Positions 7,917 through 23,132 of a stretch of 23,132 nucleotides of DNA are shown here, piece by piece; within the stretch, counting starts at the first letter, position 1; each line of letters begins with the position of its first letter. Made by a program: the position numbers and the translations under genes. The notes below the pieces were generated by a model. It saw nothing but the letters and a program-made list of their open reading frames with translations. It was not told the origin of the DNA and ran no database searches. The stretch covers positions 1 through 23,132 of the forward strand of contig CAIJMQ010000029.1 of NCBI GenBank assembly GCA_903821905.1. Direction: 5' to 3'. This DNA comes from an uncultured bacterium. GTDB taxonomy: Bacteria; CAIJMQ01.

Positions 7917-9743
7917 CTATTTAGAGTGCTGGTAAATTGTCATTCCACAGGTATCACAGTTGAATTCCACGTTAAATCGCTGGCCGTCTTCATCCTCCAG
8001 GAACATTGTTCTAGTAGTGCCTGTTTCTTTTTTACCTTCGCATAATCCCAGTTCTTGCTTAAGGCAGTATTTGGTGAACATTACTGCTTTGCTGTTTAAA
8101 TCAATGCCTGATTCAGCAGCGCTTTCAATCGTTTCTACGCCATGGTGTTCGTAAAATGCTTGTGCTTTCTTATTCAGAACGTTCCCCAAATAGCTTAATT
8201 GTTTTTCGGGATACGGAACATTATTGGGTACTATTTTGCTTTTATTATGTGGACGGTTGGTTTCGCGTATTTCCGAGAGTTTCTGAACGATTACCCGTCT
8301 AAATTCATTCAACACCGAAACAGGAAAGAAGTAAATATCTTTGGTTTCAATGCTTACGCCTGTGGATTCAAAAATCGTATTGCCCAACTTTTGCAATTGT
8401 GTGGTAATGATTTCTTTGGCTGATTCTTTTTTCTGTGCTAACTTTTTTTCAGTTTTTATTTCGACTATTGCTTCATTACCGTCGGAATCTTTGGCGATAA
8501 CTGCTATGCCTTCGGAGGTATCGCGTAATATCAATGAGATAAGTATTTTTCTCCGTGCGGGATTATTTTCCAGAAGTTTCGTAAATTCGTGGTCATAGTT
8601 GCGAAAAATTCTCATACCGGTACGGATACCGTAAAGCTTTTGCGGGATTATCTTACGTCCTTCAACACCATTTATCATAGTTCCATCCAGATTATTATGC
8701 GAATCAAAAAAGCAAATCCCATCGCTGTTATGCAGCTGGATATCTCCGTTGAGTGTAAAAGAGTTTTTCTCCACTCTTGATACAATGCCTACAAATTCGC
8801 CCATGGATTTTGGCGTATTTATTGAACCCATATTTTTGCATTTGCCCATAATGTTGTAGTTGGTATAACCCCGATTAAATGTTTTATTCAATTCGGGCGT
8901 GAAGTTTAAAGACGATTTGCCGGATGAGTTTTTTTGTAATCCTTTTTTTGTCAGAATTGCGTCTAATTTTTGCCGGTAGAATCCGACTACATTAGCCACA
9001 TAAGGCGTTTCCTTGAGCCGACCTTCAATCTTAAATGTGGTGACGCCTGCATCGATAAGTTCTTCCAGATAGTTCGACAGGTTTAGGTCTTTGAGTGAGA
9101 GTAGGTAGCGGTCCTTGACGATGGTTTTACCGGATTTATCTTTCAAGCTGTATAACCTTCTGCATGGTTGTGCGCAGATGCCGCGATTACCGCTTCGTCC
9201 ACCGTTCGCATAGCTCATATAACATTGTCCGCTTGCTCCAACACACAACGCCCCGTGAATAAAATATTCCAGTTCGATTGTCGTATGTTTTCGGATTTCC
9301 CGGATTTGTTCAAGTGATAATTCCCTTGCCAGAATTACCCGCGAAAACCCAACGTCCTGCAGAAACTTAATTTTTTCTACAGAAGCATTATTCGTTTGTG
9401 TACTGGCAATTAACGGTATAGGCGGCAAGTCCCATTCTAAGAGACCTACATCCTGAATCATTAATCCATCAACGCCGATTTTATAAAGCTGGTGAATCAT
9501 TTTTAAAGCGACTGGCAGTTCATTGTCATATAGCAGTGTATTGAGCGCAACATGGACCCTAACATAATACGGGTGAGCAAACTCAACAATCTGTCGGATA
9601 TTGTCGATACTGTTGCTTGCGGCTTGACGGGCGCTGAACTGAGGTGCTCCGATATAAACTGCATCTGCACCACACTTAATTGCAGTGATGGCTGTTGCCA
9701 CATCTTTTGCCGGTGCCAGTAATTCAATCTTTTTATTTTCCAT
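7917..9743 (-). CDS. U32 family protein, RlhA/YdcP-like
   Basis: 608 aa. The N-terminal U32 domain (about 1-260) opens with ELLAPAKD and GADAVYIGAPQFSAR. C167, C174, C190 and C194 (CVGASGQC and ICAQPC) are spaced as in U32 proteins that hold an Fe-S cluster. The long C-terminal part fits the DUF3656-containing branch, and a second Cys group (about 563-601, including CDTC) ends the protein. The E. coli relative RlhA hydroxylates a cytidine of 23S rRNA and TrhP acts on tRNA wobble uridine, so an RNA hydroxylase is more likely than the historical 'peptidase'. It is transcribed away from ilvB across a 122-bp divergent gap. The exact RNA target is not determined. Confidence 0.85.
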   Translation of the reverse strand: MENKKIELLAPAKDVATAITAIKCGADAVYIGAPQFSARQAASNSIDNIRQIVEFAHPYYVRVHVALNTLLYDNELPVALKMIHQLYKIGVDGLMIQDVGLLEWDLPPIPLIASTQTNNASVEKIKFLQDVGFSRVILARELSLEQIREIRKHTTIELEYFIHGALCVGASGQCYMSYANGGRSGNRGICAQPCRRLYSLKDKSGKTIVKDRYLLSLKDLNLSNYLEELIDAGVTTFKIEGRLKETPYVANVVGFYRQKLDAILTKKGLQKNSSGKSSLNFTPELNKTFNRGYTNYNIMGKCKNMGSINTPKSMGEFVGIVSRVEKNSFTLNGDIQLHNSDGICFFDSHNNLDGTMINGVEGRKIIPQKLYGIRTGMRIFRNYDHEFTKLLENNPARRKILISLILRDTSEGIAVIAKDSDGNEAIVEIKTEKKLAQKKESAKEIITTQLQKLGNTIFESTGVSIETKDIYFFPVSVLNEFRRVIVQKLSEIRETNRPHNKSKIVPNNVPYPEKQLSYLGNVLNKKAQAFYEHHGVETIESAAESGIDLNSKAVMFTKYCLKQELGLCEGKKETGTTRTMFLEDEDGQRFNVEFNCDTCGMTIYQHSK

Positions 9744-9807
9744 TTTTGTCTCAGGAATAAATTAACACCTCATTTTACACTAAAAGTTTCTTCATAAGTA
9801 CATTAGG

Positions 9808-9836
9808 TTGACCACTTTTGCTTCGGAGAGTATAAT
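9808..9836 (+). promoter_or_regulatory. Sigma-70-type promoter for ilvB-ilvN-sppA
   Basis: TTGACC (9808-9813), a 17-base spacer and a perfect TATAAT (9831-9836). Predicted start of transcription is near 9843, only about 23 bases before the ilvB ATG, with AAAAGGA as ribosome binding site. The short leader leaves no room for a T-box or peptide attenuator, so any leucine/valine control must act on initiation. Confidence 0.8.
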
Positions 9837-9865
9837 CTAAACAAAATTTTTAAAAGGAAAAACAA

Positions 9866-11533
9866 ATGAAAATGACTGGCGCAAAAGCTATTGTTGAATC
9901 TCTTAAAAGAGAAGGAGTTGACACTATTTTTGGTATTCCGGGTGGTCAAGTCCTTCCTCTTTTTGATGCACTTTATGACGCACCATTCCGTTTTATCTTA
10001 ACAGGGCATGAACAGGGTGCTGCTCATATGGCGGACGGATATGCCCGCGCCACCGGGAAAGTAGGAGTGTGTATTGCTACTTCAGGCCCGGGAGCTACAA
10101 ATCTTGTAACAGGCATTGCAACTGCTTATATGGATTCGGCTCCTATGGTTGCTTTAACCGGGCAGGTTACAAGAAAGATGATAGGCAACGATGCATTTCA
10201 GGAAGCGCCGATAACCGAGATAACAAAAGCTATTACTAAACATAATTTCCTCGTTCAGGATGCGAGAGAATTGCCTGAAATCATAAAATCGGCATTTTAT
10301 ATTGCTTCTTCAGGTCGTCCTGGACCTGTACTTATAGACCTTCCCAAAGATGTACAGACAGAAGAAATAGAATTTAAATATCCTGAAAAATTAAATTTAA
10401 ATTATAAGCCGGTATTGAAGGGACATATCGGACAGATAAAAAAAGCGTGTGAACTTATTCATACAGCAAAGAGACCGGTTTTATATATCGGCGGCGGGGT
10501 GATTATATCGGGTGCTAGTGAGCTTGTTTACAAGTTAGCTGAAAAAATAAAGACACCTGTGACAATGACACTTTTGGGATTAGGCGGATTTCCTTCTTCG
10601 CATCCGTTATCACTTGATATGCTCGGAATGCACGGAACAAGATATGCCAATTATGCAGTTATGGAGGCAGATTTAATTATTGCGATAGGTGCAAGATTTG
10701 ACGACAGAGTGACCGGCAAAATAGATTCTTTTGCCCCGCATGCAAAAGTTATACATATTGATATAGACCCTACATCTATAAGTAAATCCATAGATGTGGA
10801 TGTGCCGATAGTAGGGGATGCCAAGGAAGTATTGAAAGATTTGATTGCAAATGTAAAAGCACCAGATACTGCGGATTGGCTGAAAAAGATAAATGGATGG
10901 AAAAAGAAATATCCTCTTACATATACCAAGGACAATAAATTAAGACCTCAATATGTAATAGAGGAGATTTGTGACCTTACAAAAAATAAAGCGATTATAA
11001 CAACTGAAGTAGGTCAGAATCAGATGTGGGCAGCCCAATTCTATAAATATAGTTTACCAAGAACGTTTTTGTCATCAGGCGGGCTGGGAACTATGGGATA
11101 TGGGTTTCCTGCGGCTATTGGTGCGAAGATGGGCTGTCCCGACAAAATAGTTTTTGATATTGCCGGTGACGGCAGTATTCAGATGAATATTCAGGAACTT
11201 ATAACAGCAGTAGCATATAAAGTTCCCGTGAAAGTTGCTATTTTGAATAATTGTTATCTGGGGATGGTAAGACAGTGGCAGGAACTTTTCTATAAGAGGA
11301 GATATTCTGCAAGCGATTTAAAGAGGAACCCTGACTTTGTGAAGATAGCTGAAGCATACGGGGCTTTGGGCATAAGAGTGGATAAGAAAAAAGACGTAAG
11401 AAGTGCCTTACAGAAAGCTATTAAGAGTCCGCTGCCTGTATTTATTGATTTTGTTATAGAGAGAGAAGAAAACGTTTCTCCCATAGTTCCGCCAGGAGAA
11501 GCACTTGACCAAATGATAGGTGGAATGGCATAA
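9866..11533 (+). CDS. ilvB: Acetolactate synthase large (catalytic) subunit
   Basis: 555 aa ThDP-dependent enzyme joining two pyruvates (or pyruvate and 2-oxobutyrate) in valine, leucine and isoleucine synthesis. Order of parts: N-terminal PYR domain with the cofactor glutamate in [15 protein letters not shown] (E49), a central FAD-type domain (about 190-330), and a PP domain with the ThDP/Mg motif [12 protein letters not shown] followed by NN (about 430-460). Length and motifs are normal for the family. It lies 14 bases upstream of ilvN and is driven by the promoter at 9808-9836. Confidence 0.97.
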
Positions 11534-11547
11534 AAAGTGAGGGGAAT

Positions 11548-12066
11548 ATGAAAAAACATATAATATCTGTGTTAGTAGAGAATAAGTCTGGCGTTCTTTC
11601 AAGAATTGCTGCTCTATTTGCTGCGCGCGGATTTAACATAGATTCCTTGGCAGTTGGCGAAACGGAAGACCCGAAGATTTCACGCATGACTATTGTTTCA
11701 GAAGGAGAAGAGAATGTTTTGGAACAGGTTGTAAAGCAACTACGCAGATTGATTGATGTCATAAGCGTTTCTGACTATACCAAAAAAGGACTTGACTATG
11801 TAGGCAGAGAACTGGTTTTAGTTAAAGTAGATGCTCCTCCCTCCAAACGCTCGGAGATTATTGAGATTGTAGATATTTTTAGAGCCAAGACAGTAGATGT
11901 GTCGATTAATACATTATCTATAGAAATTACCGGAACTGATAGCAAAATACAGGCATTTTTGGATTTGATGCATAATTTTAAAGTAAGAGAAATTGTGCGG
12001 ACAGGCAAAATTGCGATAGTTCGAGAGAATCAGTCCTCAGGCAAGAAAGAGAGTAAAAATGAATAA
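11548..12066 (+). CDS. ilvN: Acetolactate synthase regulatory subunit
   Basis: 172 aa, the usual size of IlvN/IlvH. An ACT domain (about 4-75, ISVLVENKSGVLSRIAALFAARGFNIDSL) binds the valine effector; the C-terminal half (about 80-160) is the ALS small-subunit domain. It activates IlvB and confers feedback inhibition. GAGGGG just before the ATG is the ribosome binding site. Its last bases overlap the sppA start by 8, so sppA is coupled to amino-acid synthesis genes; no ilvC follows. Confidence 0.96.
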   Translation: MKKHIISVLVENKSGVLSRIAALFAARGFNIDSLAVGETEDPKISRMTIVSEGEENVLEQVVKQLRRLIDVISVSDYTKKGLDYVGRELVLVKVDAPPSKRSEIIEIVDIFRAKTVDVSINTLSIEITGTDSKIQAFLDLMHNFKVREIVRTGKIAIVRENQSSGKKESKNE

Positions 12067-13024
12067 AGAAAGAATAATTTCTGTACTCATTCTTATATTT
12101 TTTATTATATCTTTGATAGCAGCCAGCTTCCTTGTGCTTAGAGTTTCTGAAGAAAAAATGGCGAGGTTTCCAAGAGAACTTAAGGGATTTTCTACATTTA
12201 GCCAGAATATTGCTATAGTTAATGTATATGGTCCGATAGAGATTGAATCAAGTAATTATTTAGGGTTTTTTCCTTCAGGTGCTGATTACATAGTAGAAGA
12301 ATTGCAAAACTTACGTAAAAATCCAGATGTTAAAGCTGTAGTCTTGCGCATTAATTCACCCGGTGGTTCTGTTGGTGCTGTGCAAGAGATATACAGTGAA
12401 CTTTTGAAATTAAAGCAAAGCGGTAAAAAATTGGTGGCTTCACAGGCAGAAGTATCGGCTTCAGGGGGGTATTATCTTGCAGCTGCTGCGGATAAAATTG
12501 TTTCCGAACCGGGTGCTGTAACTGGCAGCATAGGTGTTATTATTCCCATAACTAATTTCGAAGGACTTTTTGGAAAAATTGGCGTTCAGGTTGATGTAGT
12601 TAAGTCAGGTGCACACAAAGATATAGGTTCAAGTTCGAGAGCTCTCACCGATGAGGAAAGAAAGATATTGCAGGATATGGTTGATAGTGCTTATCAACAA
12701 TTCTTAGATGCAGTTAACAAAGGAAGAAGTTCTTTAATGACTGAAGAGAAGATAAAAGAAGTTGCGGACGGCAGAATCATGACGGGTGCACAGGCAAAAG
12801 AAGTCGGTCTTGTTGATGAATTGGGAGATCTTGATGACGCCATAAATATTGCTGCAGAGCTTGCGGGTATAAAAAAGAGTGATATAAGGATTTTTGAGGA
12901 AAAGAAAGATTGGAAAAAAATGCTTTTACAACAAATAGGAAGTAAAACATCCAATAATCCTTTGAGTAGTTTTTTACCTCCCAGGACAGGATTACTTGAA
13001 TATCGCTGGGCTCCTGAATATTAA
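12059..13024 (+). CDS. sppA: Signal peptide peptidase SppA, short type
   Basis: 321 aa membrane-bound serine protease that degrades signal peptides left after secretion. One N-terminal anchor (about 6-27), then a single S49 domain. The Ser/Lys dyad is visible as S135 (SASGGYY) and K187 (SGAHKDIGSS). Length matches the single-domain B. subtilis-like form, not the duplicated E. coli form. Overlap with ilvN and a 1-base gap to the downstream membrane-protein gene suggest one transcript. Confidence 0.93.
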   Translation: MNKERIISVLILIFFIISLIAASFLVLRVSEEKMARFPRELKGFSTFSQNIAIVNVYGPIEIESSNYLGFFPSGADYIVEELQNLRKNPDVKAVVLRINSPGGSVGAVQEIYSELLKLKQSGKKLVASQAEVSASGGYYLAAAADKIVSEPGAVTGSIGVIIPITNFEGLFGKIGVQVDVVKSGAHKDIGSSSRALTDEERKILQDMVDSAYQQFLDAVNKGRSSLMTEEKIKEVADGRIMTGAQAKEVGLVDELGDLDDAINIAAELAGIKKSDIRIFEEKKDWKKMLLQQIGSKTSNNPLSSFLPPRTGLLEYRWAPEY

Positions 13025-13025
13025 A

Positions 13026-13616
13026 ATGAACAACTTAGAAATTCTTTTCAATCTGCTCATCCGTCCCAATTATGCTTTGAAGAGGACGGACAAAACCTTA
13101 AGCTTGTCTATTATGGTGGTAATAGCAGCGCTTTGGTCTTCAACCGTTGGCAGTTACCTCATAAAAGGAGTATCTGTAAACACCTCGATGTTTTTGTTTA
13201 ACATTATTGTCCCGATTATAGTGAAACTTTGTTTGATTATTATGTTAGTTTCGATATGGCATTTCATCTGCGAAAGTTTTAAGGGGGAAGGAAAAGCTAC
13301 TGAACTTTTCCCGTGTATTTGTCTTTCTTTGCTCCCATATATATTTCTTGCACCCATGGCATTGATTCTGAAATTTTCAGGTATCAATGTAACTTTCCTT
13401 TGGATATTTTTTAATTTTTTAATACTTGTATGGGTGATTGCTCTTCAGATATCTTCACTGAAAATAGTATATGAAATAAATGGCCCAGCCGCTACTCTGA
13501 CTTATTTTATTCCGTTTGCGGTGGTTTTTGTTCTTTCTATTTTGATATTAATACTTGTGATATCGTTCTTCTTTATTACAGCTTCCCAAGCATTAACGCC
13601 TTTCTTGGAACTTTAG
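13026..13616 (+). CDS. Yip1-like multi-pass membrane protein
   Basis: 196 aa from ATG 13026, which directly follows the sppA stop. An upstream in-frame start at 12996 would overlap sppA and adds nothing recognisable. About five hydrophobic segments (near 25-45, 55-80, 95-115, 125-145, 160-190) follow an amphipathic start (LFNLLIRPNYALKR) like that of bacterial Yip1-domain proteins. Function unknown; in other genomes Yip1-like proteins are small integral membrane proteins without a fixed role. Last gene of the ilvB operon, 8 bases before the tRNA. Confidence 0.6.
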   Translation: MNNLEILFNLLIRPNYALKRTDKTLSLSIMVVIAALWSSTVGSYLIKGVSVNTSMFLFNIIVPIIVKLCLIIMLVSIWHFICESFKGEGKATELFPCICLSLLPYIFLAPMALILKFSGINVTFLWIFFNFLILVWVIALQISSLKIVYEINGPAATLTYFIPFAVVFVLSILILILVISFFFITASQALTPFLEL

Positions 13617-13624
13617 CACAACAC

Positions 13625-13708
13625 GCCGAGGTGGCGGAACTGGCAGACGCGCATGGTTCAGGACCATGTTCCCTAACGGGATTGGGGGTTCAACTCCCCC
13701 CTTCGGCA
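13625..13708 (+). tRNA. tRNA-Leu(CAG)
   Basis: Class II tRNA of 84 nt. The acceptor stem pairs GCCGAGG with CTTCGGC (one G-U), with discriminator A at 13708 and no encoded CCA. The anticodon arm is CATGG-TTCAGGA-CCATG, giving anticodon CAG (reads CUG). The variable arm is long, as in leucine tRNAs, and the T loop is TTCAACT in a G/C stem. The accessory region begins just past its 3' end, a common integration point. Confidence 0.95.
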
Positions 13709-13747
13709 CTATGAATTGCTACTACGATAAACAAAAGACATTCTGCA

Positions 13748-13767
13748 GGTGTAAGGCTGGTGTAAGG
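13748..13767. repeat. Tandem direct repeat GGTGTAAGG, 11-bp period
   Basis: GGTGTAAGG occurs at 13748-13756 and 13759-13767, one helical turn apart, 40 bases beyond the tRNA and next to an excisionase-like gene. The spacing suits cooperative binding on one DNA face, for example by an excisionase or an integrase arm domain. This role is inference. Confidence 0.5.
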
Positions 13768-13848
13768 ATAATAGATAAGCTCCTCTGACTTTTAACCCTT
13801 GTAGTAACTTTCTTATAAGGGAAGAAAAAACCTGTTATTTGTCTTAGC

Positions 13849-13877
13849 GAAAAAATTTGAATTTTTTCCATTTTTTT
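13849..13877 (+). terminator. AT-rich hairpin, possible bidirectional terminator
   Basis: GAAAAAAT-TTGA-ATTTTTTC (13849-13868) is a perfect eight-base-pair stem with a four-base loop, followed on the plus strand by CATTTTTTT. It could end plus-strand transcripts of the ilvB-tRNA unit and, since the stem itself ends in T on both strands, the minus-strand island operon whose last gene stops at 13876. Stability is low because the stem has one G-C pair. Confidence 0.35.
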
Positions 13878-14115
13878 ATCCCACATTCTTTAATTCTTCC
13901 CGGATTGCTTCCAGCTTCTCAGCTCTCTCTCGCTGTTTCTTAAAACCCTCTTCAATCATTTTCTCAAACGCATCCACGCAAAGACAGACCTTCCCCGCTA
14001 CTTTCACTGTTAACTCAGGATACATTCCAAGAGATCTCCATTTATAGAGTGTCTTCAGTGAAAACGGGCATATCTCCTTTAATCTTTCCCTGTCTGATAG
14101 TGGAATTAATCTCAT
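13876..14115 (-). CDS. Small excisionase-like helix-turn-helix protein
   Basis: 79 aa. Residues about 15-50 (CPFSLKTLYKWRSLGMYPELTVKVAGKVCLCVDAFEKMI) read as a MerR/excisionase-type winged helix: helix, turn, recognition helix (LKTLYKWR), then a short wing ending in a helix. A basic/acidic helix completes it (52-75). Such proteins bend DNA in excision or act as small regulators. AGAGG lies 9 bases before the ATG. It is the last gene of the minus-strand island, 39 bases after the E1 gene, and lies beside the GGTGTAAGG repeats and the tRNA, which supports a recombination-directionality role over a plain regulator. Confidence 0.65.
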   Translation of the reverse strand: MRLIPLSDRERLKEICPFSLKTLYKWRSLGMYPELTVKVAGKVCLCVDAFEKMIEEGFKKQRERAEKLEAIREELKNVG

Positions 14116-14154
14116 TTCTTGTGCCTCTCTTTTAAGAGATTTTTATCATTCTTG

Positions 14155-14916
14155 CTATGTTTTTCTTCCAATAACTCTCTTTACGTCTGGAACAAACCCA
14201 CATAAAAAGAGCTGCCTATAATTCCAATTTCTTTTTCTATCCATCACGACAGAATCAATGGCAAATAAAACATAACCCACTATTATTTTCACAATATCAA
14301 TTATTGCCGGTGTATTGGGGCAGGGATTCCGTTTTTTATCAATTGATTTCGGGAAAGCATCCAAAAATGATGTTTTGTTTGGCTCTTGAATGAATATATA
14401 GCCGGTATTTGCTTGTCGGTCTAACCCCATAAAGATTACAGGTGTGGTTTTATAAAAAAATCTCGAAACAAATATTCTTGTTTCATCGTTATCTGGAGCG
14501 CAAATTGCTATATCGCAATTTGTATCTATATTCTCTTCTATTGTCTTCTGAAACATAAAGGGATAAGCAATTAACTCAGTCTTTCTGATACCTTCTTTAA
14601 CTAAATTCTTGGCAAGGCAGATGGCCTTGTTTTTATATAAATCTTCTTCATAAAACCTTTGCCTATTCAGATTTGAGAGTTCTACTGTATCCCCATCAAA
14701 TATTTTTAAACATCCAACTCCTTTCCTAACTAAACCTTCCCCAATCTCTCCTCCTAAACCACCAGCCCCGATAAGTACTACAGTAAGACCGTTCATGATT
14801 TCTTGTTTGAATCCAGAAACTCTTTCCTGCCTGTCCGTAATGCTTCCGGCAGAAGTATCTTTAATCTCTTTGCAGTAAAATCTAACTGATTTCAGTGATA
14901 CGGTAGATTTTTCCAT
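14155..14916 (-). CDS. E1-like (ThiF/MoeB family) ubiquitin-activating enzyme
   Basis: 253 aa adenylyltransferase expected to activate the C-terminus of a ubiquitin-like protein with ATP. The Rossmann motif is VVLIGAGGLGG (46-56), with D74 after the second strand and the E1 signature SNLNRQRF (81-88). A later loop has CPNTPA with C199, a candidate catalytic cysteine; I see no paired CxxC zinc site like that of MoeB. The first 40 residues (KEIKDTSAGSITDRQERVSGF) are a typical pre-Rossmann segment. Ribosome binding site GGTGGAG about 9 bases upstream. It overlaps the JAB gene by 35 bases, so the pair is translationally coupled. Fits the E1 of bacterial Ubl-E2-JAB cassettes (BilD-like) better than ThiF/MoeB because no thiamine or molybdopterin genes are near. 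Confidence 0.88.
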   Translation of the reverse strand: MEKSTVSLKSVRFYCKEIKDTSAGSITDRQERVSGFKQEIMNGLTVVLIGAGGLGGEIGEGLVRKGVGCLKIFDGDTVELSNLNRQRFYEEDLYKNKAICLAKNLVKEGIRKTELIAYPFMFQKTIEENIDTNCDIAICAPDNDETRIFVSRFFYKTTPVIFMGLDRQANTGYIFIQEPNKTSFLDAFPKSIDKKRNPCPNTPAIIDIVKIIVGYVLFAIDSVVMDRKRNWNYRQLFLCGFVPDVKRVIGRKT

Positions 14917-15556
14917 CTATTTTCTCCACCCCCTTTCCATAAATTTGTATCTCAAAATCAAAACTTGAATAAAATCTGATATAGCCATCTCTTGAGAATA
15001 TCGCACCTATTGCCTTGTAACCACCTCTATCCAAAGTTCCCTGTAGTCTAAGGTCAACTCCTGAAGGCATGGTCGAACCAATGCCCACACCGGGATGGAT
15101 ATGGAAACATCCTTGTAGTCTATGCTCACACTTACTTAGATAAATTAACGTTTTTCTTACCGCCACATCTTCAGCCTTGGCAAAAACAAAGGTTTGTATC
15201 TTAAGCGGCAAATCGATGATCCTGTCTAATATAGAGATATTTCCAACTTGAGGACCTGTAACAAAATGCATAGACTCTACCCTACCTTTATTCAGAAACC
15301 TAAAACAGTCATGCAAAAAGAGGGAGCTTAAAAAATGAGTCTGTACATCTTCTTGTTTCGCTGAAGATAAATCTTCTATAATTCTACCAATCTTGCCTAC
15401 AAGCAATGCCTGTTGAAAAAAGAAATTTGCCTTATCAGTACTATGCTCTTTGCAGGATGAAGCTATTTCCTCAGTAAGCCTGCTTATACTAGTCCCAATC
15501 TCACTTTTTATTTTCTCCATCTCCAATTTAGAATATCCAAAAGTCCCGGTTTCCAT
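14882..15556 (-). CDS. JAB/JAMM metalloprotease, deubiquitinase-like
   Basis: 224 aa. An N-terminal helical part (about 1-80) precedes a JAB domain (about 85-215). The zinc and catalytic residues are E94 (GRVESMHFVTG), H152 and H154 (HIHPG), S165 and D168 (SGVD). The Rpn11/JAMM core is complete, but 10 residues separate the second His from Ser where the classic motif has 7. Expected role: trim or remove ubiquitin-like modifiers, zinc-dependent, in the cytoplasm. The start at 15556 is fixed by GGAGGTG five or six bases upstream. The gene overlaps the Ubl-E2 gene by 49 bases and the E1 gene by 35, giving a compact three-gene cassette. Confidence 0.88.
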   Translation of the reverse strand: METGTFGYSKLEMEKIKSEIGTSISRLTEEIASSCKEHSTDKANFFFQQALLVGKIGRIIEDLSSAKQEDVQTHFLSSLFLHDCFRFLNKGRVESMHFVTGPQVGNISILDRIIDLPLKIQTFVFAKAEDVAVRKTLIYLSKCEHRLQGCFHIHPGVGIGSTMPSGVDLRLQGTLDRGGYKAIGAIFSRDGYIRFYSSFDFEIQIYGKGVEKIDGKIYRITEIS

Positions 15557-16233
15557 TTAGCACCTCCGTTATGATTCTTGAACGCATTAGTTATCAGAGC
15601 TTCAACCGTAATTATTCCTGAATCTACGTTTTTAGGTTTTTCAGAAAAATGGATGTGAAACTTGTCATTGCCCTTATATGAGAAACACTGCCAATGGCTG
15701 CTATCCTTCAATGCTTGTGGTGGATCAAATATATAGAAGGAATAAGAACTTATGAAGTTTCGCTCAATTAAACCTCTAAAAACACCATAATCTGTTTTGT
15801 AAGAGCCTTTTAACCCTTTTGCTGTCTTAATCCAATTATTTTCCTGCCAGTAAGGAATAGTACTATCTGTCTTTGTTATCTTGGTTAGCTTAAATTCTCT
15901 TGTTCCTGTTAACGTTGCATGTTTTCTCAGTACTTCGGGATATAGCCTTCTTGTCCCAATTAGTTTAACCGCAAGATTAATTAAATCCCCCGAAGGGGAG
16001 GCAGTGGAAACGCCAACACTAACGTCTTCGGGTGTTGCATACAATTTTTCCTTGTCTGCAACTAGATTGAAGATATCTGCATCGTTATCCAGAACATCGC
16101 CGCCTTTTCTTGAAAGCTGATACCCTTGCAATCCGGCTTCATCAAGAATTTGTTTGGCGGTTGCGCTTGGAGCAATAGCGACATCTTTAATCTCTCCACT
16201 GCCTGCCACAACTACAGAGATACTCTTCTGCAT
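15508..16233 (-). CDS. Ubiquitin-like domain fused to E2-like domain
   Basis: 241 aa in two parts. Residues about 3-75 form a beta-grasp, ThiS/multiubiquitin-like domain (SISVVVAGSGEIKDVAIAPS at its start, then ILDEAG, a Leu-rich end near 52-65, LYATPEDVSVG). Residues about 85-241 resemble prokaryotic E2 family E: a YIFDPPQALK segment (167-176), then HWQCFSY (180-186) with C183, the only cysteine in the protein and so the candidate thioester site, and WKPGLLDIL near the end. The Ubl part has no terminal Gly-Gly tail, so it may be a docking or regulatory domain, not the conjugated modifier; no stand-alone Ubl is seen nearby. AAAGGAGG precedes the ATG by about 11 bases. First gene of the cassette with JAB and E1. 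E2 identity is inferred from context plus weak motifs. Confidence 0.72.
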   Translation of the reverse strand: MQKSISVVVAGSGEIKDVAIAPSATAKQILDEAGLQGYQLSRKGGDVLDNDADIFNLVADKEKLYATPEDVSVGVSTASPSGDLINLAVKLIGTRRLYPEVLRKHATLTGTREFKLTKITKTDSTIPYWQENNWIKTAKGLKGSYKTDYGVFRGLIERNFISSYSFYIFDPPQALKDSSHWQCFSYKGNDKFHIHFSEKPKNVDSGIITVEALITNAFKNHNGGAKWKPGLLDILNWRWRK

Positions 16234-16265: not shown

Positions 16266-16303
16266 TTCACTGGTAGTGGGGATTTTTGGGGAAATTTATA
16301 ACC
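16266..16303 (-). promoter_or_regulatory. Composite element copy A, upstream of Ubl-E2
   Basis: On the minus strand: GGTTATAAA (16295-16303), nine variable bases, then AAATCCCCACTACCAGTGAA (16266-16285), ending 32 bases before the Ubl-E2 ATG. The same layout with the same 9-base gap stands before the methyltransferase gene (21012-21049). TATAAA looks like a -10, which would put the conserved 20-base block at the start of the transcript. It probably starts the ubiquitin-type cassette as its own unit, as the gap to the nuclease gene upstream is 140 bases. Confidence 0.6.
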
Positions 16304-16373: not shown

Positions 16374-16745
16374 TTATTCTATTGTTATTGTTATGGGTGT
16401 TGGAAGAAAGTCTTCAATAAGGTAAAATTTTGTTTTCTCAAATAAGGTATTATCTAAATAGTTTTTAACTTGGTTTTTTATATTGTTTAAAACTATAGAT
16501 GAATCGCATACTATCCATACTTCATCACAGCCCAATTCGAAATCTTTTTTAATCTGCAAACAGTGTTTAGGAGAAAGTTGGATTTCTATGGCGATGGTTT
16601 TATTTCTATCATTGATTAAAACGTCAACATTCTTTCCAATATAGGCCTCAATTGTGGCAACCTTGCCCTGATTTATAAAATAATCCGCTATTAGTCTTTG
16701 TAATCTTCTATGTTTTAAGCCGCCTTTACCCTTTTCTTTAGCCAT
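16374..16745 (-). CDS. PD-(D/E)XK nuclease-like protein
   Basis: 123 aa. The core reads E33, then GKNVDVLI with D41, then TIAIEIQLS with E54-x-Q56. This is the pattern of restriction-endonuclease-fold proteins, with Gln in place of the usual Lys, which some active members tolerate. A basic N-terminus (GKGGLKHRRLQRLIADYF) could contact DNA. Its start overlaps the ATPase gene by 31 bases, so the two are co-translated and probably work together, as nuclease plus translocase. AAAAGGTG serves as ribosome binding site. Could instead be a CoiA- or conjugation-associated accessory protein; catalytic activity is not proven by the motif. Confidence 0.6.
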   Translation of the reverse strand: MAKEKGKGGLKHRRLQRLIADYFINQGKVATIEAYIGKNVDVLINDRNKTIAIEIQLSPKHCLQIKKDFELGCDEVWIVCDSSIVLNNIKNQVKNYLDNTLFEKTKFYLIEDFLPTPITITIE

Positions 16746-18451: not shown

Positions 18452-18997
18452 TTACCACATATATTGGTTGTAAATCACTTCCTTATAGCAAGCGGGACAG
18501 TAAGGAACGTTATCGCCTTTTTCGTTCTTGAAGAAAGATGTATGGAGTATACAAAGACCGCGCCCGCACCTATTACAGTTAAAAGCATGGTCTTTATTAT
18601 CGTATTGGTTACATATAGAGCACCTTACACCAATTTCTGATTCCTCTATCACCTTGCCACTGACAGTAACGATTAATGCTTTTTCAGTCTTTCTTTCCAA
18701 TCCCTCATTTGTTTCCTTAGTAGAAACGCTTTTACTGATAAAGCCTCTATCTGAAATCATCATTGGCTTTCTGAAGGTTATTTCCTTGCCAATTATTTTT
18801 AAAATGTTTTCAACGATGTTGTCTATATTTGCATCATGTGGAAAATCATTTACAATATCCCTTATTGCATCAGGATTACAGCCAAAATTCCTAATTTTCT
18901 CATCAAGAAGTAGACTGTCCTGAGATTTTGCTGAGCCGTTTTTCTCGTTTTGTTCCAGCTCTATAAGTTTTTTAATCAATTCCCTCAAATCATCCAT
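18452..18997 (-). CDS. Cross-brace (RING/FYVE-like) zinc-finger protein
   Basis: 181 aa. The N-terminal 100 residues are helical and charged. The C-terminal module has eight ligands in the order C126-x2-C129, C141-x2-C144, C149-x2-H152, C167-x2-C170. That is the FYVE/RING-type treble-clef/cross-brace layout, with the CxRCGRxLC block of FYVE and PHD relatives. In an element that also carries E1, E2-like and JAB genes, an E3-like or substrate-adaptor role is plausible, though the gene lies in the neighbouring ATPase unit, not the cassette itself. Plain zinc ribbon or DNA-binding roles are the main alternatives. AAGGGA lies 6 bases before the ATG. It sits between the membrane protein and ATPase genes with gaps of about 10 bases. 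Confidence 0.7.
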   Translation of the reverse strand: MDDLRELIKKLIELEQNEKNGSAKSQDSLLLDEKIRNFGCNPDAIRDIVNDFPHDANIDNIVENILKIIGKEITFRKPMMISDRGFISKSVSTKETNEGLERKTEKALIVTVSGKVIEESEIGVRCSICNQYDNKDHAFNCNRCGRGLCILHTSFFKNEKGDNVPYCPACYKEVIYNQYMW

Positions 18998-19007
18998 TTT
19001 TTATCCC

Positions 19008-19412
19008 TTATAAGTTGCAAAGAATTATCTGCAAAATGAATAGTATCCAGATTGCCAGTTTTATTATTTTCTTGAGTTTAAGCTGATCTCCGTAGCGTGG
19101 AGCAAGAAATGATGGAATAAGGTCGGGCAGAAAAATCATGCAGAGAAAGGAAAAGATAACTATGAAAGCAAGGCCTCCCGAACCCATGTTTCTAAATATA
19201 TTAGTAGGAACATAAAGTCCGATTATAATCGATATTACTGCTACGCATGTCTGCGTAAATACACTCCTGTATAGCCTAAGCCATACCAAAGTTAATAGAA
19301 TATATGTTATCAGTAGAATGAGACCCGTCCGGATTATGAAAGAAATTATGCTAGGGCTCAGCCAAGAGACAAAATTTATCCCAAAATCTTTGATTCTAAC
19401 CCAGATATCCAT
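19008..19412 (-). CDS. Small multi-pass membrane protein
   Basis: 134 aa, mostly hydrophobic, with about four transmembrane segments (near 20-45, 52-70, 78-103, 114-133) and a basic loop RYGDQLKLKK before the last one. No family recognised. GGAG five bases before the ATG. Fits tightly between the methyltransferase gene (3 bases upstream) and the zinc-finger gene (10 bases downstream), so it belongs to the same operon. A membrane partner of the cytoplasmic ATPase, or a toxin-like or effector pore, are both possible; sequence alone gives no choice. Confidence 0.7.
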   Translation of the reverse strand: MDIWVRIKDFGINFVSWLSPSIISFIIRTGLILLITYILLTLVWLRLYRSVFTQTCVAVISIIIGLYVPTNIFRNMGSGGLAFIVIFSFLCMIFLPDLIPSFLAPRYGDQLKLKKIIKLAIWILFILQIILCNL

Positions 19413-21011: not shown

Positions 21012-21049
21012 TTCATTGGTAGTAGAGATTTATCGCGTGTTTTATAACC
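21012..21049 (-). promoter_or_regulatory. Composite element copy B, upstream of DNA methyltransferase
   Basis: On the minus strand: GGTTATAAA (21041-21049), nine variable bases, then AAATCTCTACTACCAATGAA (21012-21031), ending 13 bases before the methyltransferase ATG. It matches copy A at 16266-16303 in 26 of 29 non-spacer bases with the identical spacing; all three differences are transitions. The TATAAA overlaps the stop codon of the sigma-like gene, so this element would start a separate transcript inside the end of that gene. Confidence 0.6.
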
Positions 21050-21455
21050 CCTCAATAAATTTTCTTAATTTCTTAAGGGCTCTTTTTAGTAAAAAATTCA
21101 CCCTCGGCTGAGATATATTCAGTTTTTGAGCAATCTCCTTCTGTTTATAATTCTGCATAAAGAACCGAATTACTTCCTTTTCCCTGCTATTCAGGGATTT
21201 GTTTATCACCTCTTCCAGTTCTAACTTTGTAAATAATTCTTCCCTCACATAGAGGCTAAGCTTTGTTATGGTATTGAGAACACCTATCTGGAAAGGATTA
21301 AGTGTTTGGTGGGTATCTTCAATATAAGAGAAGTCAACAGGATAGGTTTTTGGCTTTCGAGAGGCGGTTTTTCCCCTGCCGGTGATTTCCTTTTTTAATG
21401 CGCTGCATATCTCTGTACATCTCTCGTGTTCAATACAATCAGGACATAGGGTCAT
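21042..21455 (-). CDS. Sigma-region-4-like helix-turn-helix regulator
   Basis: 137 aa. The C-terminal part has LNSREKEVIRFFMQNYKQKEIAQKLNISQPRVNFLLKRALKKLR, a sigma-70 region 4-type helix-turn-helix (about 88-132), as in phage late regulators of the ArpU/RinA kind and small sigma factors. The N-terminus is cysteine-rich (C4, C7, C13, C17 in CPDC and CTEIC), which could bind zinc. No region 2 is visible, so it probably works with host RNA polymerase as an activator, not as a full sigma factor. Its ribosome binding site and start are covered by a strong hairpin (21440-21508). It sits directly upstream of the methyltransferase and is a candidate reader of the two composite elements. Confidence 0.72.
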   Translation of the reverse strand: MTLCPDCIEHERCTEICSALKKEITGRGKTASRKPKTYPVDFSYIEDTHQTLNPFQIGVLNTITKLSLYVREELFTKLELEEVINKSLNSREKEVIRFFMQNYKQKEIAQKLNISQPRVNFLLKRALKKLRKFIEGL

Positions 21456-22119: not shown

Positions 22120-22527
22120 ATGGTATTTTCAGTTTTAAATAGGGAAAAACTTGAAAGAAGAGTGTTAAATAAGAAAGGTGATCTGAACTTAGATGCTACC
22201 CTTAAAGATTTCGCTGAATATGTGGGATTTAGAGTACACCGGAATGATGAGGGGCTTGGTCATGCTACCTATTCACGATTGCGCAAATTTGACTACATAA
22301 CAATCAGGGATTTGGGGAAAATCAGGCCATACGGATTAAAAAGGCTTATGATAATTGGTATAGGGGGAAAAAATGCAAGAGAGATTAATAAATTCTTGTC
22401 TAAATATGGTGCTGAGCCTATACCTTGGACAACAAAAAAGTATCAGGCTTGGGGATTACAAAAAAAATTGCACAAGGAATATGGCCCAAATATAGATGAC
22501 GTGTGGGATATTATAAGAAAAAACTAA
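22120..22527 (+). CDS. Helix-hairpin-helix (RNA polymerase alpha-CTD-like) protein
   Basis: 135 aa. Residues about 65-100 (YITIRDLGKIRPYGLKRLMIIGIGGKNAREINKFL) resemble the helix-hairpin-helix pair of RNA polymerase alpha C-terminal domains, where ITxxDL and a GxGxKxxxEI loop alternate, suggesting DNA backbone binding. The flanks are basic. Only clear plus-strand gene of the island; it is divergent from the minus-strand operon and overlaps the next gene tail to tail by 4 bases. A weak AAAGG lies 12 bases upstream of ATG. A regulator of the divergent promoters is a reasonable guess; the fold call is moderate. Confidence 0.6.
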   Translation: MVFSVLNREKLERRVLNKKGDLNLDATLKDFAEYVGFRVHRNDEGLGHATYSRLRKFDYITIRDLGKIRPYGLKRLMIIGIGGKNAREINKFLSKYGAEPIPWTTKKYQAWGLQKKLHKEYGPNIDDVWDIIRKN

Positions 22528-23132
22528 TATTTTTCTATTAAGCAATAATTAAACATAGGTATTAACTCATACTCGTCCATCTCGTTTGCCTGAAGTTTAG
22601 TCTTAACTTTTTTTAAGAAAAGTTTATTTAAATCCTCTATTCTTCTTCTTACCCTTCTTGAAATATCTTCCACTTCTCCTTTGGTATTTCCCATAGCGAA
22701 TTGCATCTCTGCTTTTGTGATATTGGGTTTAAGTTCTACTGCTTTGACTATTTCTCTTAATTCTTTTAACTTTCCAGTCTCAGCGATATCCCAAACATGC
22801 TTGGCTATATTCCATGCTGTGCCTCCGGTTCCCTTATGTTTAAGAACATAAGTCAAAATCCTGTATGTGAGCTTGCCCGGAGGGCATTTGTCTTTTCTAC
22901 CATTTATAAAAACTTGCGTGTGAGTTTCTTCTCTAATTACGAGTAAATTGTATTTTTTGGAATTTACTATTTTTTCTTTTTCGTCTATATCAATCGGTTC
23001 TCCTTTAGGTTTAGAATCTTTATACCAAACTTTATATTCCAGTTTCTCCTCTTCTGGGTCAACACTTTTAACGGAGGTACTATCGGTACGTGCTCGTCGT
23101 CTCTTATGCTCTTCTTCTCTTCCATGACTACC
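22524..23132 (-). CDS. Winged-helix DNA-binding protein, 5' partial
   Basis: The frame is open from its TAG at 22524-22526 to the right edge (203 codons without a stop), so the start is outside. A TTG at 22856 is in frame but only internal. The N-terminal visible part is charged (REEEHKRRAR, then DPEEEKLEYKVWYKDSKPKGEPIDIDEKEK by segments); then KCPPGKLTYRILTYVLKHKG and GTAWNIAKHVWD lead to EVEDISRRVRRRIEDLNKLF. This order resembles the OmpR-type winged helix (helix, HVW turn, then an RxRRxI recognition helix). It may be a regulator of the element. No receiver domain is visible within the window. Confidence 0.6.
   Translation of the reverse strand, partial: GSHGREEEHKRRRARTDSTSVKSVDPEEEKLEYKVWYKDSKPKGEPIDIDEKEKIVNSKKYNLLVIREETHTQVFINGRKDKCPPGKLTYRILTYVLKHKGTGGTAWNIAKHVWDIAETGKLKELREIVKAVELKPNITKAEMQFAMGNTKGEVEDISRRVRRRIEDLNKLFLKKVKTKLQANEMDEYELIPMFNYCLIEKY

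What the first reader, a model, noticed from the sequence alone, without database searches (positions are those of the whole stretch)
14155..16233. Compact ubiquitin-type cassette: Ubl-E2 fusion, JAMM peptidase and E1 in overlapping genes
Three genes on the minus strand overlap by 49 and 35 bases. The E1 has the Rossmann glycines and SNLNRQ, the JAB protein has E94, H152, H154, S165 and D168, and the first protein joins a beta-grasp domain to an E2-family-E-like domain. Known bacterial relatives (Bil-type and multiubiquitin E1/E2/JAB operons) act in anti-phage defence by conjugating a modifier to proteins. This one appears on a tRNA-adjacent accessory region without a separate Ubl gene.
Basis: partly seen in the sequence, partly recalled or inferred. 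Interest (0 to 1): 0.85.

Follow-up and report, generated by a model that had tools for sequence, protein, structure and literature searches.

The report
Mobile HerA-nuclease cassette with ubiquitin-like tagging
A mobile DNA element in an uncultured bacterium carries a seven-gene set that joins a ubiquitin-like protein-tagging system to a DNA pump and a nuclease, and because the same set recurs in three other bacterial phyla, and the same genome pairs such a pump-nuclease with a second, unrelated tagging system, bacteria may use ubiquitin-like tags to control DNA-destroying or DNA-moving machines.

Summary
The three overlapping genes are real, at the stated coordinates. The E1 is a ThiF-family enzyme (2.8e-24). 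All five JAMM residues are invariant in four relatives. The first protein begins with a ubiquitin fold (residues 1-76). Its C-terminal half carries the only, invariant cysteine (C183) and an invariant H195, but its E2 fold could not be confirmed; the 'family E' label is inconclusive. The true unit is larger: membrane protein, AN1-like zinc protein, HerA ATPase, CoiA-like nuclease, Ubl-E2, JAB, E1. It is collinear in two further phyla, and rearranged, with ATPase and nuclease fused, in a third. All four copies lie beside recombinases; here the cassette adjoins attL of an element in tRNA-Leu, with a 58-bp attR on another contig. The same genome holds a second, unrelated Ubl/E1/E2/JAB cluster beside a homologous HerA-nuclease fusion, so the coupling recurs. 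Best reading: the JAB frees the Ubl after G74, E1 and C183 conjugate it, and the tag controls a HerA-nuclease complex, probably for defence (inferred). New variant of a known kind.

The parts
13625..13709 (+). tRNA-Leu (CAG), integration site
   Evidence: ARAGORN; Rfam RF00005
13654..13711 (+). attL core: 58-nt direct repeat, exact copy (attR) at G000:C28:8659-8716 next to a tyrosine integrase
13748..13767 (+). two GGTGTAAGG repeats 11 nt apart; similar pair beside attR (L022 8864-8845); candidate arm-type integrase sites
   Evidence: read directly; function inferred
13876..14115 (-). 79-aa putative excisionase-like HTH protein at the element border
   Evidence: ORF; no Pfam match; by position and sequence only
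14155..14916 (-). E1-like ThiF-family adenylyltransferase, 253 aa
   Evidence: PF00899 2.8e-24; 51-67% identity to three relatives; PDB hits Ube1, UBA5, MoeB, ThiF
14882..15556 (-). JAB/JAMM peptidase, 224 aa; E94, H152, H154, S165, D168
   Evidence: invariant in 4/4; Prok-JAB 0.013 best among relatives, none for the window protein itself
15508..16233 (-). Ubl-E2-like fusion, 241 aa: Ubl 1-76 with conserved G74, variable linker, C-terminal domain with C183 and H195
   Evidence: alignment; AF2; Foldseek/VIA; residues
16266..16284 (-). 19-nt motif AATCCCCACTACCAGTGAA upstream of Ubl-E2
   Evidence: second copy upstream of the methylase; two copies against 0.01 expected
16374..16745 (-). CoiA-like PD-(D/E)XK nuclease, 123 aa (E33, D41, E54)
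   Evidence: PF06054 22.2 bits, cut-off 20.3; motif invariant in 4/4; fused to HerA in L006 and L043
16715..18442 (-). HerA/FtsK-superfamily ATPase, 575 aa, possible C-terminal winged helix
   Evidence: HerA_C 7e-7, NCBIfam HerA 1.7e-11 and CedD 4e-11, alignment
18452..18997 (-). AN1-like binuclear zinc protein, 181 aa; candidate E3 or adaptor
   Evidence: C-x2-C-x11-C-x2-C-x4-C-x2-H; zf-AN1 0.017 in relatives, DUF5830 2.6e-4
19008..19412 (-). small integral membrane protein, 134 aa, about four TM segments
   Evidence: hydropathy; homologues in L012 and L013
19415..21055 (-). N4/N6 DNA methylase in the same gene run (this locus only)
   Evidence: PF01555 2.7e-41
21042..21455 (-). sigma-70 region 4-like small regulator, also at the head of the L012 cassette
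   Evidence: PF04545 1.7e-10; blastp 1e-30 to L012

Best explanation
The three genes are the protein-tagging half of a mobile seven-gene cassette; the other half is a HerA-type DNA-pumping ATPase with a CoiA-like nuclease, a membrane protein and an AN1-like zinc protein. The JAB metallopeptidase cuts the Ubl-E2 fusion after the conserved glycine 74 and frees a ubiquitin-like modifier with an exposed C-terminal glycine. The E1 adenylates that glycine and passes the Ubl to C183 of the E2-like half. The E2-like half, perhaps helped by the zinc protein as an E3 or adaptor, attaches the Ubl to a target, and the JAB can remove it again. The target is most likely the HerA-nuclease complex or something that complex acts on, so the tag switches or directs a DNA-degrading machine that protects element and host against other incoming DNA. 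Shown by sequence: the genes, their homologies, the conserved catalytic residues, the ubiquitin fold (predicted), the conserved seven-gene unit, the mobile element, and the recurring link between HerA-nuclease and Ubl systems. Inferred: processing at G74, the E2 role of C183, the E3 role, the target, and defence.
For: The same seven genes and almost nothing else are shared between the window, L012 and L013, in three phyla: all-vs-all BLASTP finds only the cassette, the sigma-r4 gene (two loci) and recombinases. L006, in a fourth phylum, keeps E2 (truncated), JAB and E1, with a divergent HerA-nuclease fusion and positional equivalents of the zinc and membrane proteins. JAMM residues invariant; C183, the only cysteine, and H195 invariant in 4/4. 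The Ubl models as ubiquitin: Foldseek's first hit is Caldiarchaeum ubiquitin in complex with its Rpn11 (25% identity, prob 1.0), VIA Z about 8.7. G74 is conserved and followed by a variable linker. A JAMM protease is known to mature a Ub precursor after its glycine (CsRpn11, PMC6043591). HerA and nuclease genes overlap by 26-31 nt in three loci and are fused in L006 and L043. A second, unrelated Ubl/E1/E2/JAB cluster in the same genome sits beside an end-to-end homologue of this HerA-nuclease (3e-26 to L006, 5e-16 to the window HerA). HerA with a nuclease is an anti-phage arrangement elsewhere (DUF4297-HerA, Sir2-HerA; PMC12948488).
Against: The E2 fold of the C-terminal half is unproven: no profile hit, AF2 pLDDT about 40, no UBC match among the listed Foldseek rows. 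The Ubl has one conserved Gly, not Gly-Gly. The E1 has no separate Cys domain, and both CxxC pairs are lost in the window and L012. No direct evidence of defence: no PADLOC system matches, and flanks are not clearly defence islands. Only four cassettes were found, so conservation rests on few sequences.
Confidence: 0.5

Rival explanations
1. The HerA ATPase, nuclease and membrane protein form a DNA-transfer or uptake machine of the mobile element (like CedD or a conjugative coupling ATPase), and Ubl tagging regulates transfer rather than defence.
For: HerA scores with CedD 4e-11 and VirB4 9e-10; a small multi-TM protein is part of the unit; every cassette lies beside a recombinase; an archaeal Ubl gene is neighbour to a membrane-associated HerA-like ATPase (PMC2948915).
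Against: No relaxase, pilus or other T4SS gene was seen in the sequenced parts; recombinases and flanks differ between loci while the cassette stays, as expected of cargo; a PD-(D/E)XK nuclease fused to the pump suggests degradation.
Confidence: 0.22
2. A Bil-like system: the Ubl is put on phage or other foreign proteins to spoil them, and the HerA-nuclease genes are only co-mobilised defence neighbours.
For: Bil attaches a Ubl to the phage central tail fibre (PMC12948488); BilB has a catalytic Cys and a His 13 residues on (PMC11354881), compared with C183 and H195, 12 apart, here; the Ubl model matches a bacterial Ubl-deubiquitinase complex, 8tyx, at Z 8.6.
Against: HerA and nuclease are in tight order with the Ubl genes in four phyla while other neighbours change; a different Ubl system in the same genome also pairs with a HerA-nuclease; the E1 lacks the two-domain Bil architecture.
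Confidence: 0.13
3. The C-terminal half is not an E2; the E1 transfers the Ubl directly, or the fused Ubl acts non-covalently as a regulatory domain.
For: No test confirmed the E2 fold; archaeal SAMP-type systems conjugate without an E2 (own knowledge).
Against: The only cysteine is invariant in H-x-x-C-F, with an invariant downstream His; predicted strand-helix order is compatible with an E2 core, at low confidence; a JAB and E1 are always next door; Ubl-E2 fusions with JAB and E1 are described (PMC7159879).
Confidence: 0.15
4. A cofactor or sulphur-carrier pathway (ThiS/ThiF, MoaD/MoeB or siderophore type).
For: E1 best family models are ThiF and MoeB, far under their cut-offs; JAB and E1 occur in such operons (PMC1779556).
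Against: No sulphur, thiamine, molybdopterin or cysteine-synthase genes; no rhodanese; neighbours are a DNA pump and nuclease on a mobile element; sporadic presence: one genome in each of four phyla sampled.
Confidence: 0.04

Closest known systems
Ubl-E2 fusion with separate JAB, E1 and RING genes in vWA-MoxR/FtsH ternary conflict systems (Kaur et al. 2020, PMC7159879)
   Same: One protein joins Ubl and E2; separate JAB and E1; a zinc protein as candidate E3; the authors also propose that the JAB frees the Ubl
   Different: Here no vWA, MoxR, FtsH, EAD1 or caspase; the partner is a HerA ATPase with a nuclease and a membrane protein. Direct sequence homology to those proteins was not tested
Bacterial operon types 6a-6e (Iyer et al. 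2006, PMC1779556), including the ICE-borne 6b and Ubl/JAB/E1/E2 6d
   Same: Ubl, E1, JAB and E2-like genes together, sporadic across phyla, some on mobile elements; the 6d E2 has a conserved Cys with a conserved His downstream; 6e sometimes fuses polyUbl to an E2-like domain and has a treble-clef-type Zn protein
   Different: 6e E2-like domains lack the Cys; none of the listed gene sets holds HerA, a nuclease and a membrane protein; no Prok-E2 or Multi_ubiq model matches here
Bil (ISG15-like) anti-phage system
   Same: Ubl, E2, E1 and JAMM enzyme; Cys with His 13 residues on in BilB compared with 12 here
   Different: BilA is a separate double Ubl; BilD has two adenylation domains plus a Cys domain; no HerA-nuclease; Ubl-E2 and JAB here have no PADLOC hit
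DUF4297-HerA and Sir2-HerA (Nezha) defence complexes
   Same: HerA-type ATPase genetically and physically tied to a nuclease or other effector enzyme
   Different: Those have two genes and no ubiquitin-like system; the nuclease here is CoiA-like
PRTRC plasmid cassette
   Same: ThiF-related E1 on mobile DNA; E1 scores 37 bits with PRTRC_ThiF
   Different: Far below that model's 144.75-bit cut-off; no ParB- or ParM-like genes seen

Membership tests
E1/ThiF superfamily | Rossmann GxGGxG, adenylating D-x-D and SNLNRQ motif, ThiF profile | tested here: met
   PF00899 2.8e-24 (86 bits against cut-off 28.1); motifs invariant or nearly so in 4/4
JAMM/JAB metallopeptidase | E ... H-x-H ... S-x2-D metal-binding motif | tested here: met
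   E94, H152, H154, S165, D168 invariant in 4/4; spacing H-x-H-x10-S-x2-D
JAMM/JAB metallopeptidase | Match to Pfam Prok-JAB above cut-off | tested here: inconclusive
   0.013 for the best of 2 of 4 relatives, none for the window protein
Ubiquitin-like (beta-grasp) modifier | Ubiquitin fold | tested here: met
   AF2 residues 1-68 block pLDDT 56-79; Foldseek top hits ubiquitin and ISG15, prob 1.0, best E 5e-3; VIA Z 8.3-8.9, 66-76 residues
Ubiquitin-like (beta-grasp) modifier | C-terminal glycine that can be exposed | tested here: inconclusive
   Single G74 conserved in three complete relatives at the domain end; cleavage not shown
E2 (UBC) fold / Prok-E2_E | UBC fold and profile match | tested here: inconclusive
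   No Pfam or PDB profile match; hhalign to six Prok-E2_E-related proteins prob 4% over 10 residues, but Prok-E2_E and Prok-E2_B do not find each other either, so the test has no power; model too poor
E2 (UBC) fold / Prok-E2_E | Catalytic cysteine | tested here: inconclusive
   C183 sole and invariant; catalysis not testable here
Bil system | Separate BilA Ubl, BilB E2, BilC JAMM, two-domain BilD E1 | tested here: not met
   Ubl fused to the E2-like half; E1 is one 253-aa adenylation domain
Multiubiquitin (6e) operon | Tandem Ubl repeats and JAB-E1 fusion | tested here: not met
   One Ubl; JAB and E1 are separate genes
HerA/FtsK ATPase superfamily | P-loop, Walker B and HerA profile | tested here: met
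   HerA_C 28.7 bits against cut-off 22; NF040937 1.7e-11; P-loop glycines and lysine conserved in 4/4
CoiA-like PD-(D/E)XK nuclease | CoiA_nuc profile and D..ExQ/E motif | tested here: met
   22.2 bits against cut-off 20.3; E33, D41, E54 invariant
RING/AN1 E3 ligase | Binuclear zinc cross-brace with E3 activity | tested here: inconclusive
   AN1-like spacing in three of four; zf-AN1 0.017 at best; activity not testable

The most novel reading that the evidence does not exclude
A previously undescribed class of bacterial system in which reversible ubiquitin-like conjugation controls a HerA DNA pump and its nuclease, carried by integrative elements and assembled at least twice with unrelated Ubl modules (Ubl-E2 fusion type, and the standalone ThiS-like Ubl type on contig C60 of the same genome).
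Probability: 0.4. Interest if true: 0.85.

Novelty: new variant of a known kind. Interest (0 to 1): 0.75.

Why it matters
Known bacterial ubiquitin-like systems tag phage proteins (Bil) or immune synthases (CBASS); HerA-nuclease pairs are a separate group of defences. This cassette genetically joins the two and recurs across phyla, and a second, unrelated pairing exists in the same genome. If the tag controls the DNA machine, it would be a bacterial parallel to ubiquitin control of DNA-processing complexes and would give an unassigned class of Ubl operons a testable target. Its compact form (Ubl fused to its putative conjugating domain, with its own JAMM enzyme) also bears on how ubiquitin systems were assembled.

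Tried and rejected
Relatives in INPHARED phages, PLSDB plasmids and IMG/VR: none with Ubl-E2 or JAB in phages or plasmids, none with Ubl-E2, JAB, E1 or HerA queries in IMG/VR. The genome-contig scans gave only the G140 locus. Plasmid hits of the E1 and HerA were a thiamine-operon ThiF and DptH-like restriction proteins. A weak JAB hit in G261 (5.9e-4, with stops) was set aside as chance. Profile comparison with Prok-E2_E and Prok-E2_B had no power. Folding the C-terminal half alone gave pLDDT 40 and no UBC fold among the listed Foldseek rows. L012 and L013 proteins were not given to the structure predictor because its rule admits only window and the search for related loci/search_dna loci, so the models rest on one full sequence plus a 44-residue fragment. 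Cofactor synthesis was rejected from gene content. Composition does not mark the element: GC 0.34-0.38 against 0.36-0.41 for the flank. Rfam shows only the tRNA. Burroughs et al. 2011, which treats prokaryotic RING-type E3s with E1/E2/JAB operons, is not held, so an earlier mention of a HerA-linked type cannot be excluded.
Full report
OBSERVATION. The window holds three minus-strand ORFs at the stated places, overlapping by 49 and 35 nt, each with a ribosome-binding-like sequence. The E1 is a ThiF-family protein (PF00899, 2.8e-24). The JAB has E94, H152, H154, S165 and D168. Neither the window JAB nor the Ubl-E2 matches any Prok-JAB, Prok-E2 or Multi_ubiq model in Pfam, NCBIfam or PADLOC; among relatives Prok-JAB appears at 0.013.

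RELATIVES. The Ubl-E2 query first gave a fragment at the end of a contig of G140 (JAOZOU010000027.1), next to a JAB and an E1. A profile of the two JABs over 386 diverse genomes added G241 and G279. No further copy turned up in the phyla of G000, G140, G241 and G279 (7, 8, 44 and 10 genomes). The four carriers belong to four different phyla, one carrier each: a sporadic distribution, as expected of horizontal movement.

THE CONSERVED UNIT. Loci L012 (G241) and L013 (G279) show the same order as the window: membrane protein, zinc protein, HerA ATPase, small nuclease, Ubl-E2, JAB, E1. All-vs-all BLASTP finds nothing else shared except a sigma-70 region 4-like gene (window and L012) and recombinases. 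E1 identities to the window are 51-67%, JAB 39-52%, Ubl-E2 41-48%, nuclease 28-56%, HerA 21-55%. In L006 (G140) the order is E2-JAB-E1-Zn-TM-HerA, the nuclease is fused to the HerA C-terminus, and the Zn and TM proteins are positional equivalents without BLAST support. HerA and nuclease genes overlap by 26-31 nt in the other three loci. Fusion in one lineage and overlap in the others suggests that the two proteins work together.

PROTEIN ANATOMY. Ubl-E2: AF2 gives residues 1-68 a beta-grasp order of elements (block pLDDT 56-79; the rest below 50). Foldseek's first hit is Caldiarchaeum ubiquitin in its Rpn11 complex (25% identity, prob 1.0, E 5e-3), followed by ISG15, ubiquitin, NEDD8 and bacterial Ubl entries 8tyz and 8tyx; VIA-align gives Z 8.3-8.9 over 66-76 residues, 8tyx_A 8.6. 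The domain ends at G74, conserved in three complete relatives and followed by a linker variable in length and sequence. The C-terminal domain carries the only cysteine, C183, in H-x-x-C-F, and H195, 12 residues on; both are invariant in four of four. In BilB the catalytic Cys138 has a catalytic His151 (PMC11354881); Iyer et al. noted a conserved downstream His in their 6d E2s (PMC1779556). The UBC fold itself is not shown. JAB: JAMM residues invariant. E1: motifs conserved; both CxxC pairs present in L013 and L006 are absent together in the window and L012. Zinc protein: C-x2-C-x11-C-x2-C-x4-C-x2-H/D then C-x2-C/H in three of four, AN1-like (0.017). Nuclease: CoiA_nuc above cut-off, E33, D41, E54 invariant. 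HerA: HerA_C above cut-off, CedD and HerA equivalogs at about 1e-11. Membrane protein: about four TM segments by hydropathy.

MOBILE ELEMENT. The window is the whole of contig C29. The last 58 nt of the tRNA-Leu region (13654-13711) recur exactly on contig C28 (8659-8716, minus), where no complete tRNA is found. Beside this copy lies a tyrosine integrase (L022:8948-10078, PF00589 7e-35). Chromosomal genes lie on the outer sides: ilvB, ilvN and sppA-like genes in the window; an antiporter, a 2-isopropylmalate/citramalate synthase-like gene and aspartokinase on C28 (names read from sequence). GGTGTAAGG repeat pairs lie near both ends. So the window from 13712 and C28 from 8717 are very probably the two ends of one element of at least 15.2 kb; the middle is not assembled, and the join is inferred. 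The other three cassettes also lie beside recombinases: serine in L012 (its end overlapping a tRNA-Asn) and L006, tyrosine in L013.

AN INDEPENDENT SECOND CASE. A search of the host genome with the E1 found a second E1 on contig C60. Around it (L043) lie, all on one strand, a 669-aa HerA ATPase fused to a CoiA-like nuclease, a DUF2958 gene, the E1, a 75-aa standalone ThiS-like Ubl (PF02597 2.5e-6), a 311-aa protein with HPHVDAQGKPCLG that reads like an E2 (by motif only), and a JAB with a zinc ribbon (Prok-JAB 4.9e-5). This HerA-nuclease matches the L006 fusion end to end (3e-26), the window HerA (5e-16) and the window nuclease (4e-6), while its Ubl, E2 and JAB have no BLAST match among the cassette proteins. 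HerA-nuclease is thus coupled to two different Ubl modules in one genome, which makes a functional link more likely than chance neighbourhood. An earlier archaeal case links a URM1-like Ubl gene to a membrane-associated HerA-like ATPase (PMC2948915).

MECHANISM. JAMM enzymes can mature Ubl precursors; CsRpn11 cuts the Caldiarchaeum Ub precursor after Gly-Gly (PMC6043591), and for Ubl-E2 fusions beside JAB, E1 and RING genes the same release was proposed (PMC7159879). I therefore infer: JAB cuts after G74, E1 adenylates, C183 receives, the target is tagged, the zinc protein may act as E3. HerA-nuclease complexes such as DUF4297-HerA degrade phage DNA (PMC12948488), so control of a DNA-degrading complex for defence is the best guess. 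A DNA-transfer role remains open because of the CedD and VirB4 similarity and the membrane protein. Which target is tagged, and whether anything is, is unknown.

COMPARISON AND NOVELTY. The parts are known kinds. Their combination, HerA-nuclease plus membrane protein plus AN1-like zinc protein plus Ubl-E2/JAB/E1, was not found in the libraries or in the papers read here. It is not Bil (one-domain E1, fused Ubl) and not the multiubiquitin type (one Ubl, JAB and E1 separate). I rate it a new variant of a known kind.

Noticed in passing
G000 contig C60 (locus L043:3203-9749): Second, non-homologous Ubl/E1/E2-like/JAB cluster beside a HerA-nuclease fusion in the same genome; standalone ThiS-like Ubl of 75 aa, E2-like protein with HPHVDAQGKPCLG. 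May be a system type of its own.
   Followed up: partly
window 16266-16284 and 21012-21030 (minus): 19-nt motif AATCYCYACTACCARTGAA occurs exactly twice, just upstream of Ubl-E2 and of the probable ATG start of the DNA methylase; 0.01 expected by chance (the pattern was drawn from these two sites). Candidate operator or leader signal; absent from L012.
   Followed up: partly
window 21042-21455; L012 5532-6059: Small protein with N-terminal cysteines and a sigma-70 region 4 at the head of the gene run in two of four cassettes; possible dedicated regulator.
   Followed up: partly
window 14155-14916 and L012 10477-11226: All four zinc-ligand cysteines (two CxxC pairs) of the E1 seen in L013 and L006 are lost together in these two, while the PCPNTPA motif is kept.
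   Followed up: no
L022 (C28) 8717-14509: Other end of the element: integrase, two unknown ORFs, alpha/beta hydrolase, endonuclease/exonuclease/phosphatase protein, and an OB-fold (exonuclease VII large subunit-like) gene cut by the contig end.
   Followed up: partly
L013 13835-15311: Adenylate/guanylate cyclase-domain protein with weak similarity to Pycsar cyclases (1.2e-5) next to a small unknown protein, near the cassette's integrase.
   Followed up: no
window 22120-23132: Two ORFs at the contig end (135 aa plus strand; about 200 aa minus strand, open) without any Pfam match.
   Followed up: no
L006 4855-6021: Archaeo-eukaryotic-type primase (PriCT_1 1.6e-9, DNA_primase_S 2.9e-4) between the HerA-nuclease fusion and a serine recombinase; the G140 element may replicate itself.
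   Followed up: no
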